64,000 nt of DNA from assembly GCA_029006135.1 (NCBI GenBank), contig JAQXGE010000033.1, positions 22,435 through 86,434 of the forward strand, read 5' to 3'. This stretch comes from Oscillospiraceae bacterium. Its GTDB lineage: Bacteria > Bacillota > Clostridia > Oscillospirales > Ruminococcaceae. The position numbers were made by a program, and so were the translations under genes. Positions 39,791-48,423 of this stretch are shown here, in pieces. Under the pieces are notes generated by a model. That model was given only the letters and a program-made list of their open reading frames with translations. It searched no databases and was not told where the DNA came from. Position 1 is the first letter of the stretch. Each line of letters begins with the position of its first letter.

Positions 39791-41044
39791 ATGAAGAAAA
39801 TGAATGTTCGCACGTTTGCATCGCTCTGCCTTGGCGCCGTTTTGGCGGCAGGATGCGTGCTGCCCGCTGCGGCCCAGCCCGCGGACCCCATTGAGGTCAC
39901 CGAGGATATCACGGTTTCCGGTGACTATGACTGGACCCGCTTTGCCGATGACCACCTGACGATCAACGTTTACAACTGGGGTCTTTATATCTCGGACGGC
40001 TCCGATGAGAGTGTGGATGTTGTCTCGGCGTTTGAAAAATTGACCGGCATCAAGGTAAATTACACGACGTTTGACTCAAACGAAAGCCTGTACGCCAAGA
40101 TGAAATCCGGCGGCGCAAGTTACGATGTCATTTTCCCGTCCGATTATATGGTGGGCAAGATGATCAAAGAAGGGATGCTGGCCGAACTCGACTACGCCAA
40201 TATTCCCAACGCCGCCAACATCGGTGAGGAGTATCTGGGCTGGAGCTTTGACCCCGACAACGCTTACAGTGTTCCCTATACCTGGGGTACCACCGGCATT
40301 GTCTACAACACCACCATGGTGGAGGAACCGCCCACAAGCTGGGAGGATCTCTGGGATGTTGCCTACACCGGCAATGTGCTGATGTTCAATAACTCCCGTG
40401 ACGCCTACGCCATTGCGGCCAAAAAGCTGGGAATGTCGCTTAACCCTGCCAGCGTGGACGAAGTGGATTTGGTGATGAAGGAGCTTCAGTCACAGAAATC
40501 CGTGGTCCAAGCCTATGTCATGGACGAAATCTTTGACAAGATGGAGGGCGGCGAGGCCGCCATGGCTCCCTACTATGCCGGCGACGCGCTGACCATGATT
40601 GAGGACAACCCCGACCTTGCGTTTGTTCACCCCGAGGAGGGCGTCAACTTCTTTGTGGACAGTATGTGCATCCCGGCAACAAGCCGCAACAAGGAAGCCG
40701 CGGAAATGTTCATCAACTATCTGTGTGAGCCGTCGGTGGGCTACCAGAACTGCGATTTCATCGGCTACTCCACGCCGATTACCGAAGTGTGGGAAATGCT
40801 CGATGATGACCTCAAGTATAACCCCATCGCCTACCCGGACGAGTCCGTGATGGATAAGGCGGAAGTCTTTGTGACGCTGCCCGATGATGTCAACGCCGAG
40901 ATGGACGCCAAATGGAGTGAGATGAAGAGTTACGATGAATCTGGCAGCGGCTGGCTGGTTGTGGCCTTTATTGCCGGCGCTCTTATGATTTCAATCTTTA
41001 ACATCTGGCGCAAAATGCGTAAAAAGGTTCGGGACGATTATTAA
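39791..41044 (+). CDS. potD: spermidine/putrescine-binding protein with additional C-terminal TM segment
   Basis: LTINVYNWGLYISDG, YDVIFPSDYMVGKM, C-terminal WLVVAFIAGALMISIFNIWRKMRKK. Confidence 0.93.
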   Translation: MKKMNVRTFASLCLGAVLAAGCVLPAAAQPADPIEVTEDITVSGDYDWTRFADDHLTINVYNWGLYISDGSDESVDVVSAFEKLTGIKVNYTTFDSNESLYAKMKSGGASYDVIFPSDYMVGKMIKEGMLAELDYANIPNAANIGEEYLGWSFDPDNAYSVPYTWGTTGIVYNTTMVEEPPTSWEDLWDVAYTGNVLMFNNSRDAYAIAAKKLGMSLNPASVDEVDLVMKELQSQKSVVQAYVMDEIFDKMEGGEAAMAPYYAGDALTMIEDNPDLAFVHPEEGVNFFVDSMCIPATSRNKEAAEMFINYLCEPSVGYQNCDFIGYSTPITEVWEMLDDDLKYNPIAYPDESVMDKAEVFVTLPDDVNAEMDAKWSEMKSYDESGSGWLVVAFIAGALMISIFNIWRKMRKKVRDDY

Positions 41045-42296: not shown

Positions 42297-45200
42297 ATGC
42301 GTTACCGAAACAAACGATTTCTGGCGTCCCTGGCCGCGGCGGGGCTGATGCTCTGCTGGGCCGGGAATACCGCCCTGACTGCACTGGCGGAGGATGCCCC
42401 CGGTGTGTTAGCGGCCGCATCTCAGACAGAAGAACAGTTTCAGGATTCCAATCAGGAGCAGTCAGCGGATGCGGACAGCACGCCTGAAGCCGAATCTGTG
42501 CAGGTGACAGCTGTTCCGGAAATTCCGGAGGAATCTTTGCCGTCAGAGCCTGTGGATGAAAGTGCAGAGTCTTCACCGCAGATAACGCCGGAACAGACAT
42601 CCGAAGAAGATTCTCAAACACCTGAGGAACAAAATTTGCCTGAAGCCACAGAAGCACCGCAGCCTGCCGCGGAGGAACCGCAGGCGGAGCCGAGCGAGGA
42701 ACAGGAAGAAAGCAGTCCTGACGCGATTCCTGCGCAGATTGCTGAGAACGAACCCGAGCCTGAACCGAACACAGACTCTGCCCCGGCGCAGGAAGCTGTC
42801 ACAGAATCCGAAAATGTGGAACAGCCTGCGGGTTCTGCGGCCGTGGCAAGAATTATCCGGCCGCAGGAAAGTTATGTCCATACATATCGTTTCCTGGATC
42901 CTGATGGGCAGGCGTATGACACGATTCCCGACCAGCTGCTTTCTCCCGGGGAGACCCTCACGGAACCGGGTGTTCCACTGCGCAAGGGAGCCGCTTTTGA
43001 GGGGTGGTATACTGCTCCGCAGGAAGGAGAGCAGTTTACCGGATTTGGCACGCCTGAGCCGGAACTGACACAGAATGAGGAAACCATCCTGTATGCGCGC
43101 TTCCGGACGCAATTTTATGTCTTTTATCACGCGGCAAGCGAGCAGGGAAGTGCCGTGGTGAGCACGCAAACCTACTCAAACGGCGCGGCCGTTGACCCGT
43201 CCAATGTGCCCTTTGCACAGCCCGGGCCGGATATGGCGCTGGTAGGATGGACCGATACCCCCGGCGGCACCACCGCACAAAGCGGCTGGACGATTGAAGG
43301 GGCGGACCTTGACCTTTACCCCGTGATAAAGGCGGCTGCCTGGATCACATACGATTCCTGTGGGGGCACTGCCGTGGAGCCCGCCTACGTTCTGTCGGGC
43401 GGAAAGACTGTGCGCCCGGCTGACCCGGTACGTCCCGGCTATGCTTTTACGGGATGGTATACAGACAGCGAAACCGAACAGGCGTTTACGTTCGGGGATA
43501 CCCTGTCGGCAAGTCTGACCCTTTATGCGGGCTGGGAAGCCCAAACGGTTGGGTACAGGGTTCTTTACTGGCAGCAAAATCCTGATGATGACGGCTATTC
43601 GCTGGCACAAACCGTGGACTCCTCGGCGCTTACCGGCACTGTCACTGAGGCCACAGCCGAGCAGGACCGCTATGATAATTTCCACCCGGTCAGTGCGCCG
43701 GTGGAGCAGCAGACCGTGGCGGGGGACGGTTCAACGGTCGTGAATGTCTTTTATGACCGGGATATCGAGACAATCCGCTTTTACCGTATCAGATGGAACG
43801 GGCTGAGCCGGGAATGGAAGGAAATTGAGGAATTGACGATTACGGCGCGCTACGGTCAGGACGTCAGCGCGCTTTGGCCCAGCCAGCGCACGGATCTGAG
43901 CAATGTTTACCCCTCCCTTTGGCGGGTGGAACCCTACGGGAATACCTACCAGTCCAACATCAGCGCCATGCCGGCGGGCGGTGCCAGCTTCTACCAGACC
44001 GATACGGACGGTGCCTATACCCTGCGCTGTGAATACTGGCTCGAAGGCCTTGACAGCGAATATGCCCTTGACCATGTGGATAACTTTAACTCCGACAATT
44101 CGGACTGGAAACTGACTAAGGAGGACCTCTACGACATTAAGGGCTTCGCCCACAATACGCAGATGGGGAATCAGGTTGACAGCAAAGCACAATACATTTT
44201 TGAAGCCCCGAACGCGCAGTGCCTGGGATGGAAAATCTATTACACCCGCAACACCTATCAAATTACATTCTTTGACGGCGGTGTACAGGACTGCGTGAAA
44301 GATTTTCTCTATCAGGCGGATATTTCCGGCGCCGGATATACCCCTGCGCCGCCAGAGGGAAAGGAAGATTACACCTTTGCAGGCTGGTATCTTAATGACG
44401 AACTGGCAGGCGAGGCATATGACTTCAATGACAAAACGATGCCGGCGGGCAATTTTGCACTCTATGCCAAGTGGGTGCCGCCGGTGTATACACTCCATTT
44501 TGATTTGGGCGGAGCCTCCCTCGATGAGCAGGATGACCCTGCGGCCTATGCGGATCAGATTGTGACCAAGGATGAAGCCGCTCAGCAGCCCGGCGACCCG
44601 AGCCGTGAAGGCTGGAATTTTTCGGGCTGGATCCGACAGGACAATGGCGAACCGTACAATTTCTCAACACGCCTCTCTTCTGATCTGACTGTCTGTGCCG
44701 TTTGGACCAGTCTGAACAGTCATACCCTTACCTATGACCGCGGAGACGGGAAAAATATCCTTGTGACGGATCCAAAGACCTATGCGGCGGGATCCGGCGT
44801 CCGGCTCAGTGACCCGCCGCAGGAGTGGGTCGAGTGGGCGCAGCAAGAAGATGCGGGCTTTTTGGGCTGGGCGCTTTTCGACGAGTCCGGAAACGAAACT
44901 GCACGCTGGCTTCCCGGCGAGGAAATGACAATGCCGGACAGGGATGTGACCCTCTGCGCAGTGTGGAGCAAAGGACGTTCCACAACGCTGACGTATGACT
45001 GGAATGACGGCAGCGGCAAGCGTGTCACCGTAAAAATCCCGCAGCCCAACGCACCTTACTGCATTGAGCAGGAGAACCCCACGCGTGACGGGTATTATTT
45101 CCTGGGGTGGGGAATCGAACAGGAGGCAGACGAAGCCGACCTCCTGCATTGCGGCGATACCATCCGCGTGGATACACTCGAGGAGCAGGAGAATGTGCTC

Positions 45201-45326
45201 TATGCGCAGTGGGTAAAACTGCCGGTCCCGCCTACCGGAGTTCACAGCAGCGCGGTGAAAGGCATTTTGCCGCTTCTGATTGGCGCAGCTTTTGCGCTTT
45301 TGAGGAGGAAAAAACGTGAAATTTGA
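42297..45326 (+). CDS. large cell-surface protein with InlB-type B-repeats and C-terminal sorting signal; predicted pilus tip/ancillary protein
   Basis: Signal peptide, E/P/Q-rich disordered region, repeated YxxxFxxGG...FxGWY...LYAxW modules, C-terminal PVPPTG + hydrophobic helix + RRKKRE. Confidence 0.85.
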   Translation: MRYRNKRFLASLAAAGLMLCWAGNTALTALAEDAPGVLAAASQTEEQFQDSNQEQSADADSTPEAESVQVTAVPEIPEESLPSEPVDESAESSPQITPEQTSEEDSQTPEEQNLPEATEAPQPAAEEPQAEPSEEQEESSPDAIPAQIAENEPEPEPNTDSAPAQEAVTESENVEQPAGSAAVARIIRPQESYVHTYRFLDPDGQAYDTIPDQLLSPGETLTEPGVPLRKGAAFEGWYTAPQEGEQFTGFGTPEPELTQNEETILYARFRTQFYVFYHAASEQGSAVVSTQTYSNGAAVDPSNVPFAQPGPDMALVGWTDTPGGTTAQSGWTIEGADLDLYPVIKAAAWITYDSCGGTAVEPAYVLSGGKTVRPADPVRPGYAFTGWYTDSETEQAFTFGDTLSASLTLYAGWEAQTVGYRVLYWQQNPDDDGYSLAQTVDSSALTGTVTEATAEQDRYDNFHPVSAPVEQQTVAGDGSTVVNVFYDRDIETIRFYRIRWNGLSREWKEIEELTITARYGQDVSALWPSQRTDLSNVYPSLWRVEPYGNTYQSNISAMPAGGASFYQTDTDGAYTLRCEYWLEGLDSEYALDHVDNFNSDNSDWKLTKEDLYDIKGFAHNTQMGNQVDSKAQYIFEAPNAQCLGWKIYYTRNTYQITFFDGGVQDCVKDFLYQADISGAGYTPAPPEGKEDYTFAGWYLNDELAGEAYDFNDKTMPAGNFALYAKWVPPVYTLHFDLGGASLDEQDDPAAYADQIVTKDEAAQQPGDPSREGWNFSGWIRQDNGEPYNFSTRLSSDLTVCAVWTSLNSHTLTYDRGDGKNILVTDPKTYAAGSGVRLSDPPQEWVEWAQQEDAGFLGWALFDESGNETARWLPGEEMTMPDRDVTLCAVWSKGRSTTLTYDWNDGSGKRVTVKIPQPNAPYCIEQENPTRDGYYFLGWGIEQEADEADLLHCGDTIRVDTLEEQENVLYAQWVKLPVPPTGVHSSAVKGILPLLIGAAFALLRRKKREI

Positions 45327-45849
45327 ATCCACGGCCCCGCGGGAACAGGAGCGCACGTTACGGCTGCAGCGTGAAATGGTGCGGCTGCTTGGCCGATTCG
45401 CCGTGCTGGCCGTGCTGCTCTGGCTGGTGTTTGGCGTTCTATTCGGACTTTGTGCCATGCCGGATGACCAGATGGCCCCGCGTCTCTATGCGGGCGACCT
45501 GATTCTTTATTACCGTCAGGCACACACTTTCCACGACAGGGATGTCATAGTGGCCCGCGTGGAAGGGCAGACGGTTGTGGGCCGCGTTGCTGCCCGCGGG
45601 GGAGATACGGTGGAAATTTCGGACGGTATGCTCCATGTCAATGGCAGCACTGTGATGGAAAATGAAATCTATTACACCACCGATGCCTATGAAGGCGGAG
45701 CAACCTACCCGCTCACACTGAAGGAGAACGAACTATTCCTGCTCTGTGACCATCGGGAAGGAGCAACGGACAGCCGCTGGTTTGGCCCCGTTGCCGCCGA
45801 TTCCGTCAAAGGCAAGGTTATTACTGTTTTGCGCCGTTCACGTCTGTGA
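45316..45849 (+). CDS. signal peptidase I-like protein, apparently catalytically inactive (SipA-like pilus chaperone)
   Basis: S26 fold boxes retained (MAPRLYAGD, GRVAARGGDTVEI, TDSRWFGPV) but the Ser and Lys positions are substituted. Confidence 0.82.
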   Translation: MKFESTAPREQERTLRLQREMVRLLGRFAVLAVLLWLVFGVLFGLCAMPDDQMAPRLYAGDLILYYRQAHTFHDRDVIVARVEGQTVVGRVAARGGDTVEISDGMLHVNGSTVMENEIYYTTDAYEGGATYPLTLKENELFLLCDHREGATDSRWFGPVAADSVKGKVITVLRRSRL

Positions 45850-45907: not shown

Positions 45908-46954
45908 ATGAATCGAACCTTATCCAAGGGCGCCCGTCTGGGTACAGCCATCTTCACCGCTGCACTCGCGGCCGGTATGCTCACTGCAGTCGCTGCAGAG
46001 GAAACCGGAGCGGACGGCACGGGCGGAATCGGAAGTCAGAGCAGTATGACAAAAAGTGTTCTCAAGGACGAAAATACCTATGCCCCCAATACGACCCTCA
46101 ATTTTACACTTACCCCGGGTACAGGCAAGCCCGCTTCGGGCGGTCAGCCGGCAATCTATGACGGCATTCCGGGCGGCGTCACACTGGACAGCGGCGACTT
46201 TGTTTTTGCGCCGCAGGACAGCGACATCGGCAAGGCCAAAGTCAGTTCCAGCAATGGCATCACGGTTCATCTGGAAAAGTTTTCCAAGCCCGGCATCTAC
46301 CGCTACTCTGTACAGGAGACGATCCCCGGTACGCCGTATGACGGTCTGAGCTACAACACGGAACCCAAAACGCTTGATGTGTATATTTCCGCTGACCGGG
46401 AAGGATGCCTGAACTATACCCTGATTTGGACCGATGCCGATGGATGCAAGGGAACCGGTGAGTTTGAAAATACATACGAAACCGGATGCTTCACGGTTGA
46501 AAAAACCGTCACCGGCAACCAGGGCGACCGCAATAAGACGTTCAGCTTCACGCTGAAAGTGGACGGAGCCGAGGGCGAGCAGTATAAGGTTCTGCTGCCC
46601 GGCGGCGGCACCGGGACCATGGTCAGCGGCGAGGAATTTACCGTTACGCTCAAAGACAGCCAGACTGTGAAGGTCTACGGCCTGTCCGCGAACGATGTCT
46701 ATACCGTCACCGAGGATGATTATTCATCGGATGGCTATTCCACGACCGTCTCGGTTAATGGCGGCGAGGCAGAAGAGACCAGAACCACGACGGGTAAAGT
46801 TCCTAAGGGCGGCGAGAGCTGCATTGACTTCACCAACTGCAAGGAAGTCACTCCGCCTACCGGTCTTTTGATGGATACCGCACCTTACGCCGCAATGATC
46901 GTTCTTGCCGGGCTGTTCGCCATCTTCCTGCGCCGTCGCCGCCGTGAAGAGTAA
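45908..46954 (+). CDS. major pilin (FctA/Spy0128-like isopeptide domains)
   Basis: Signal peptide; two pilin domains with FENTYE and DFTNCKE C-terminal motifs and VEKTVTGNQGDRNKTFSFTLKV; sorting signal TPPTG-TM-RRRRREE. Confidence 0.88.
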   Translation: MNRTLSKGARLGTAIFTAALAAGMLTAVAAEETGADGTGGIGSQSSMTKSVLKDENTYAPNTTLNFTLTPGTGKPASGGQPAIYDGIPGGVTLDSGDFVFAPQDSDIGKAKVSSSNGITVHLEKFSKPGIYRYSVQETIPGTPYDGLSYNTEPKTLDVYISADREGCLNYTLIWTDADGCKGTGEFENTYETGCFTVEKTVTGNQGDRNKTFSFTLKVDGAEGEQYKVLLPGGGTGTMVSGEEFTVTLKDSQTVKVYGLSANDVYTVTEDDYSSDGYSTTVSVNGGEAEETRTTTGKVPKGGESCIDFTNCKEVTPPTGLLMDTAPYAAMIVLAGLFAIFLRRRRREE

Positions 46955-46965
46955 GGAGCCGCGTT

Positions 46966-47730
46966 TTGCAAAAACGGAATTTTATTCTTGGCGGGGCAGT
47001 GCGGATTGGAAATGCTCTGCTGGATTTGACGGCCACCGTCATGATGCTGATTCTTCTTTTCTATGGTGCGTACTGCCTGTGGGATAATTACAACATCAAC
47101 CGCGCTGCCTTTGCCGCTGACGGCTTGATGCGGTATAAGCCGGCCGTTCAGGAGGACGGGAGCGCGCCGACGATGGAAGAACTCAGAACACTGAATGATG
47201 ATGTCTGTGCATGGATTACGGTGGACAACACGAATATTGATTACCCCGTGGTTCAGGGAACGGACAATATGCAGTATGTCAACACCAGCGTGCTGGGGGA
47301 ATTTTCCCTCTCGGGCGCAATCTTTTTGGACAGCCGCTGCGCAGCTGACGGAAGCGGAGATTATCTGCTGCTCTATGGACACCACATGGACAGCGGCGCG
47401 ATGTTCGGTGATATCGTCAAATTTCTTGAGCAGGAATATTTTGATGAGCATCCCAGCGGTACCCTGACGCTCTGCGATGGGACTGTGTACGGGATAACCT
47501 TTTTTGCCTGCTGTGCGGTGGATGCCGCAGACCCGGTGTTGTACAGGCCAGACAGCGGTGCCGGACTTGAACGGCTGATGGCACGGATTGCTCAAACAGC
47601 GGTGTGTCAGCGTGAAATAACCGGGACCCCGGAGCGGGTGATCGGCCTTTCCACCTGCCTTGAGGCGGAAACGAACGGCCGCGCGGTGCTTTTTGGGTGC
47701 TTGGAGCCTTTGACCGGCTCGGATACCTGA
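46966..47730 (+). CDS. class B sortase, pilus-dedicated
   Basis: DYLLLYGHHMDSGAMFGDI His motif, IGLSTCLE Cys motif, NGRAVLFG Arg; embedded between pilin genes. Confidence 0.88.
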   Translation: MQKRNFILGGAVRIGNALLDLTATVMMLILLFYGAYCLWDNYNINRAAFAADGLMRYKPAVQEDGSAPTMEELRTLNDDVCAWITVDNTNIDYPVVQGTDNMQYVNTSVLGEFSLSGAIFLDSRCAADGSGDYLLLYGHHMDSGAMFGDIVKFLEQEYFDEHPSGTLTLCDGTVYGITFFACCAVDAADPVLYRPDSGAGLERLMARIAQTAVCQREITGTPERVIGLSTCLEAETNGRAVLFGCLEPLTGSDT

Positions 47731-47775: not shown

Positions 47776-48423
47776 TTGCAGAAAATTTGCAGCCGGGCAG
47801 CAGCGCTGGCTGCCGCACTATTCCTGCTGCTTGTGCCGCTGGCGGTTCGGGCCGAGGATACGAAGGCAGCCGTACAGATTCCGGTGACGGTTAAATTGGA
47901 GGGGGATATGCCTTCCTCGGATTTGGCCTTCACGGTGACGCTTGCCGCCAAAACCGCCTCAGATCCCATGCCCGAGGCGTCCTCGCTGGAAATTAAAGTC
48001 CATAACGGTGAGGGAAGCGGCAGCTTTGCTCCCATCACTTATACGATTCCCGGGGACTACCACTACACGGTAGTTCAAAAGCCCTGCACCCAATCGGGAG
48101 TGAAATGTGATAACGCACTCTATGAGGTGACGGTGCGGGTGGTCAACGGGGACAGCGACCTTTGCGCCGAGGTGTTTGCCAGAAAATCCGGAACAGACTG
48201 CAAGACCGGGGTGGTCAGTTTCGTGAACTGCTACCGCGCGCCGGGTGCGACTGCTGCGCCCTCTCCCACGGCAGCGCCTACAAGTCCGCCGCCCCAGCCC
48301 GCTCATCGCGCTCCGCAGACAGGGGACAATTCTACCCCTCTGCTTTGGGGTGCTCTGGCAATCCTTTCTGCCGCAGTTATGGCAGTACTCATCATCCGCG
48401 CCCGCCGCAAGGCCGGAAAATAA
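47776..48423 (+). CDS. small pilin / pilus base subunit (FctB-like)
   Basis: Signal peptide, single pilin domain, Pro-rich linker, APQTGD sorting signal + TM + RARRKAGK. Confidence 0.85.
   Translation: MQKICSRAAALAAALFLLLVPLAVRAEDTKAAVQIPVTVKLEGDMPSSDLAFTVTLAAKTASDPMPEASSLEIKVHNGEGSGSFAPITYTIPGDYHYTVVQKPCTQSGVKCDNALYEVTVRVVNGDSDLCAEVFARKSGTDCKTGVVSFVNCYRAPGATAAPSPTAAPTSPPPQPAHRAPQTGDNSTPLLWGALAILSAAVMAVLIIRARRKAGK

What the first reader, a model, noticed from the sequence alone, without database searches (positions are those of the whole stretch)
45316..45849. Signal peptidase homologue with both catalytic residues replaced (pseudo-SPase)
Aligned by eye to type I signal peptidases, the catalytic Ser box (SMxPTLxxGD) reads QMAPRLYAGD (Ser to Gln). 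The Lys box (xVKRVIGLPGDxVE) reads VVGRVAARGGDTVE (Lys to Gly). The structural DSRxFG box is kept (TDSRWFGPV). In the streptococcal pilus locus the SipA protein is likewise a non-catalytic SPase homologue needed for pilus assembly, so independent or ancient retention of a dead SPase here argues for a conserved chaperone-like role.
Basis: partly seen in the sequence, partly recalled or inferred. Interest (0 to 1): 0.82.

Follow-up and report, generated by a model that had tools for sequence, protein, structure and literature searches.

The report
SipA-type dead signal peptidase, pilus operon
This Clostridia-type bacterium carries a dead version of the enzyme that trims secreted proteins, inside a hair-building (pilus) gene set laid out exactly as in Streptococcus pyogenes, so it is a new member of the known SipA family of non-enzymatic pilus-assembly helpers.

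Summary
Gene 45316-45849 (+) encodes a 177-residue membrane-anchored type I signal peptidase homologue with Gln52 at the catalytic Ser position and Gly89 at the Lys position. No Ser lies between residues 5 and 102 and no Lys between 2 and 136, so no other alignment restores the dyad.

It belongs to the SipA family. The best PDB hits by sequence (8e-24) and by predicted fold (3e-9) are both S. pyogenes SipA 4N31. Its operon has the streptococcal FCT order: tip pilin, SipA, backbone pilin, class B sortase, basal pilin.

Fifty such genes (this one included) from the same phylum form one clade with streptococcal SipA (98/92). None of the 51 keeps the Lys; the Ser position drifts. 48 of 50 adjoin a class B sortase; the other two lie at contig ends. 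dN/dS of 0.05-0.17 in relatives shows purifying selection. The loss is therefore old and shared, not independent.

New detail: positions lining the former peptide cleft are relaxed, while a few in the membrane-proximal sheet are newly constrained. This favours a scaffold role over cleft peptide binding, but it is inference. The kind is known; the members and this pattern are new.

The parts
45316..45849 (+). SipA-like non-catalytic signal peptidase homologue, 177 aa, one N-terminal membrane helix
45469..45471 (+). codon CAG, Gln52 at the catalytic Ser position (Asp48 in S. pyogenes SipA)
45580..45582 (+). codon GGC, Gly89 at the catalytic Lys position (Gly85 in S. pyogenes SipA)
42297..45326 (+). 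tip-pilin/adhesin-like protein with four List_Bact repeats and a VPPTG sorting signal; listed ORF begins at GTG 42255, likely start is ATG 42297 behind AAAGGAGA
   Evidence: start is an inference from sequence
45225..45239 (+). VPPTG sorting motif of the tip protein
45908..46954 (+). backbone-pilin-like protein: strep_pil_rpt isopeptide domain, DUF7601, TPPTG sorting signal at 46850-46864; start ATG 45908 behind AAGGAGG
46966..47730 (+). class B sortase (TIGR03064 E=2.7e-44, 151.2 bits, cut-off 153.75)
47776..48423 (+). basal-pilin-like protein: FctA/Spy0128-like isopeptide domain, APQTGD sorting signal at 48310-48324

Best explanation
The gene encodes a SipA-family pilus-assembly factor. The protein is anchored by one N-terminal helix and keeps the outward-facing signal peptidase fold, but it cannot cleave peptides. 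The operon's own class B sortase joins tip, backbone and basal pilins; housekeeping signal peptidases elsewhere in the genome remove their signal peptides. SipA is proposed to act beside the sortase at the membrane surface, holding newly exported pilins, or the sortase itself, in a position that allows polymerisation. Shown here: homology, loss of the dyad, shared single loss, operon linkage, purifying selection in relatives. Shown elsewhere for the S. pyogenes orthologue: necessity for polymerisation and lack of peptidase activity (PMC4049620). Inferred: that this orthologue does the same, and the scaffold step.
For: SipA 4N31 is the top PDB match by sequence (8e-24) and fold (3.1e-9, TM 0.76 by target, model pLDDT 84). 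The operon order tip-SipA-backbone-SrtB-base equals cpa-sipA-fctA-srtC-fctB (PMC4049620). With S. pyogenes SipA, 50 relatives (window included) form one clade, 98/92, on a tree built without the catalytic columns. Lys position in that clade: G33, R11, A4, S2, L1, K0. 48 of 50 adjoin a class B sortase and the other two lie at contig ends; in reverse, 21 of 22 strong pilus-type class B sortases in 298 genomes of the family have a SipA beside them. dN/dS is 0.05-0.17 among close pairs. Two intact signal peptidases are in the same genome. No newly invariant Ser, Cys, His or Lys appears in the clade, so no replacement catalyst is visible.
Against: No experiment on this protein or any of the non-streptococcal copies. 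SipA binding to pilins, sortase or signal peptides was sought and not found in vitro (PMC4049620). Sixteen of 51 keep the Ser. One of 22 class B pilus-type sortases (L128) has no recognisable SipA nearby.
Confidence: 0.88

Rival explanations
1. It works by binding a signal peptide or sorting-signal peptide in the old substrate cleft without cutting it (a peptide-holding chaperone, as favoured in part by Young et al.).
For: The fold with its cleft is kept in S. pyogenes SipA, where the cleft is conserved and holds a neighbour's N-terminal peptide in the crystal (PMC4049620). The fold is predicted to be kept here.
Against: Across the clade, cleft positions lose constraint against intact peptidases (mean entropy change +1.14 vs +0.16 for other columns, p=0.0005). 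The wall position 87 is hydrophobic in 100% of intact enzymes and 30% of the clade. A cleft-blocking mutant, V99R, and peptide-binding assays were negative in S. pyogenes (PMC4049620).
Confidence: 0.2
2. It is a peptidase with a different catalytic residue set.
For: Strong purifying selection; some copies keep Ser.
Against: No Ser, Cys, His or Lys became invariant in the clade beyond those already structural in intact enzymes. The Ser position takes eleven different residues and changes at least 12 times on the tree. S. pyogenes SipA shows no activity, and D61A/K98A still polymerises (PMC4049620).
Confidence: 0.04
3. It is a decaying pseudogene of a signal peptidase.
For: Both catalytic residues are gone.
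Against: Intact frame with ribosome-binding site and translational overlap; dN/dS 0.05-0.17 in the clade; invariant residues R90, R147, D152, S153, R154, R173 in 51 of 51; operon kept across many families.
Confidence: 0.02
4. The loss here happened independently of streptococcal SipA and the resemblance is convergent.
For: Class C sortase loci show a separate loss of Lys (L061, L062, L063 carry Arg), so loss can recur.
Against: With the catalytic columns removed, S. pyogenes SipA still falls inside the Clostridia clade (98/92), next to L049 (90/78), not among intact enzymes; the operon is shared too.
Confidence: 0.04

Closest known systems
SipA/LepA of Streptococcus pyogenes FCT-2/3/4 pilus loci (PDB 4N31, 4K8W)
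   Same: Signal peptidase fold, single N-terminal anchor, Lys replaced by Gly, Ser replaced, Gly before D-x-R replaced, same operon order, class B pilus sortase.
   Different: Gln instead of Asp at the Ser position; about 36% identity; different host; tip protein built of List_Bact repeats; necessity for the pilus untested here.
Pilus-operon 'signal peptidase' of Clostridium perfringens VR-10B (PMC8088525)
   Same: Operon with three pilins, a signal peptidase homologue and a class B sortase in a clostridial species, noted as syntenic with streptococcal loci.
   Different: Catalytic residues of that protein are not discussed in the passages read and were not compared here.
Type I signal peptidase (Peptidase_S26, TIGR02227)
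   Same: Fold, boxes C and E (DSR), membrane anchor.
   Different: Ser-Lys dyad absent; cleft positions relaxed; tied to a pilus operon.
Class C sortase pilus loci with S26 proteins (L058, L061-L063)
   Same: S26 homologue beside pilins and a sortase.
   Different: Class C sortase, LPxTG motifs; L058 keeps Ser and Lys, L061-L063 have Arg at the Lys position.

Membership tests
SipA (non-catalytic pilus signal peptidase homologue) | Homology to Peptidase_S26, closest to SipA | tested here: met
SipA (non-catalytic pilus signal peptidase homologue) | Catalytic Ser and Lys absent | tested here: met
SipA (non-catalytic pilus signal peptidase homologue) | Encoded in a pilus operon with a class B sortase, order tip-sipA-backbone-sortase-base | tested here: met
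   order from PMC4049620
SipA (non-catalytic pilus signal peptidase homologue) | Common descent with S. pyogenes SipA, apart from intact peptidases | tested here: met
   98/92, catalytic columns excluded
SipA (non-catalytic pilus signal peptidase homologue) | Required for pilus polymerisation | not testable with these tools
   needs deletion and pilin immunoblot
SipA (non-catalytic pilus signal peptidase homologue) | No peptidase activity | not testable with these tools
   absence of the dyad makes activity unlikely; assay needed
Active type I signal peptidase | Ser-Lys dyad | tested here: not met

The most novel reading that the evidence does not exclude
SipA does not use the old substrate cleft at all. 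Its working face is the membrane-proximal three-stranded sheet, through residues (G44, R67, R173) that are already present in its nearest intact, mostly pilus-linked relatives. So a pilus-adapted signal peptidase gained a structural role first and lost catalysis once afterwards, when it was tied to class B sortases. After Lys was lost the Ser position drifted freely.
Probability: 0.35. Interest if true: 0.55.

Novelty: new member of a known kind. Interest (0 to 1): 0.36.

Why it matters
SipA has been essential but unexplained since 2008-2014, studied mainly in streptococci. Fifty diverse relatives give the statistical power to see which surfaces matter. They show that the general base was lost once and never regained, that the Ser position drifted, and that class B pilus sortases almost never occur without a SipA in the family sampled. 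This turns the open question of where SipA binds into a short list of residues to test.

Tried and rejected
The genome-contig scan with one protein found only a 21-residue chance match in Microbispora, so named relatives were not obtained. Plasmid hits were ordinary intact peptidases. A 'Bacteriophage sp.' hit turned out to carry a pilus operon with a SipA like that of L054, probably a bacterial contig. A first residue table was wrong because minus-strand loci were read on the wrong strand; it was redone. Pseudogene, alternative catalyst and convergence were considered and rejected.

Full report
What is there. The ORF at 45316-45849 (+) has a GTG start behind AGGAGG and overlaps the preceding stop codon by 11 bases. 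It is a Peptidase_S26 homologue. Gln52 stands where the catalytic Ser should be and Gly89 where the Lys should be. The list of all Ser and Lys residues excludes any alternative dyad.

Identity. The best solved relative by sequence is S. pyogenes SipA (4N31, 8e-24), ahead of intact signal peptidases at 6e-7 or weaker. A structure predicted from 25 aligned relatives (pLDDT 84, pTM 0.75) also matches 4N31 best. The model has one long N-terminal helix (residues 7-42) followed by the beta domain.

Operon. Upstream is a 1,000-residue protein with List_Bact repeats and a VPPTG sorting signal; downstream are a backbone-like pilin (TPPTG), a class B sortase and a small FctA-domain pilin (APQTGD). [quoted passage not shown] pyogenes FCT-2/3/4 (PMC4049620). 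VPPTG is also a sorting motif of FCT-3 pilins (PMC7900414).

Relatives. Profile searches over family, order, class and phylum samples gave a clearly bimodal score distribution. I fetched the neighbourhoods. Fifty copies, the window included, lack the Lys and belong to the SipA group; 48 adjoin a class B sortase and two lie at contig ends. Sequences that lie beside class C sortases (NF033745) are either intact (L058) or carry Arg at the Lys position (L061-L063). In reverse, 22 strong pilus-type class B sortases were found in 298 genomes of the family, and 21 have a SipA beside them.

One loss. A maximum-likelihood tree made without the catalytic columns puts the 50 and S. pyogenes SipA in one clade (98/92), nested among clostridial signal peptidases. 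The nearest intact sequences are L058 and L060b, both in pilus loci, and then L064. Presence or absence of Lys needs three changes on the whole tree: one for the SipA clade and two in the class C group. Ser against non-Ser needs twelve. In the clade the Lys position is G33, R11, A4, S2, L1; the Ser position is S16, D15, G7 and eight other residues. Published mutants fit this: D61A and D61S in S. pyogenes SipA still polymerise pili (PMC4049620). The window's copy is one of a small subclade of its genus in which the others have Asp-Gly.

Selection. Close pairs give dN/dS of 0.05-0.17, so the clade is under purifying selection and is not decaying. The window copy itself is too far from its relatives for this test.

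Where function may lie. I compared column entropy in 44 non-redundant clade members with 20 intact enzymes. The columns named as cleft residues for 4N31, plus three that line the E. coli pocket, lose constraint (mean +1.14 bits against +0.16 elsewhere, p=0.0005). Columns of the membrane-proximal sheet (strands 1, 2 and 10) gain it slightly (-0.31, p=0.012). Single strong gains are R67 and R173; G44 follows. The three nearest intact relatives already carry G44, R67 and R173, so these traits precede the loss of catalysis. Caveats: the column sets were chosen after a first look at the data, columns are not independent, the intact set is small, and the sheet signal is weak and carried mainly by two positions. 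It differs in emphasis from Young et al., who found the cleft conserved among streptococcal SipA.

Mechanism. Most likely a membrane-anchored, non-enzymatic partner of the class B sortase, holding pilins or sortase for polymerisation. Necessity and inactivity are shown only for S. pyogenes. The binding partner is unknown everywhere.

Novelty. The family, its inactivity, its link to class B sortases (PMC4049620, PMC7900414) and the presence of such operons in C. perfringens (PMC8088525) are published. New here are this member, the breadth of the clade and the constraint pattern.

Noticed in passing
L060:5902-6525 (-) and L060:9443-10024 (-): One locus carries both an intact signal peptidase (Ser-Lys) and a dead SipA upstream of the same class B pilus operon, which suggests that the two are not interchangeable.
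   Followed up: partly
L044:5497-7233 (-), L045:6853-9213 (+), L039:5980-7338 (-), L105:7704-9071 (+): In a subclade close to the window's SipA, the class B sortase sits directly behind SipA and has a long C-terminal extension; in L045 it holds List_Bact repeats like those of adhesins.
   Followed up: partly
L061, L062, L063: S26 homologues beside class C sortases have Arg at the Lys position, a second loss of the general base in pilus loci.
   Followed up: partly
L065 (MT836522.1): A record deposited as 'Bacteriophage sp.' from human stool holds a pilus operon with SipA and class B sortase like that of L054; probably a bacterial contig.
   Followed up: partly
L128 (G917:C2): The only strong pilus-type class B sortase hit in the family sample without a recognisable SipA nearby.
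   Followed up: partly
window 39791-41044 (+): Extracellular solute-binding protein with a C-terminal hydrophobic segment and basic tail, which looks like a membrane anchor on a binding protein.
   Followed up: no
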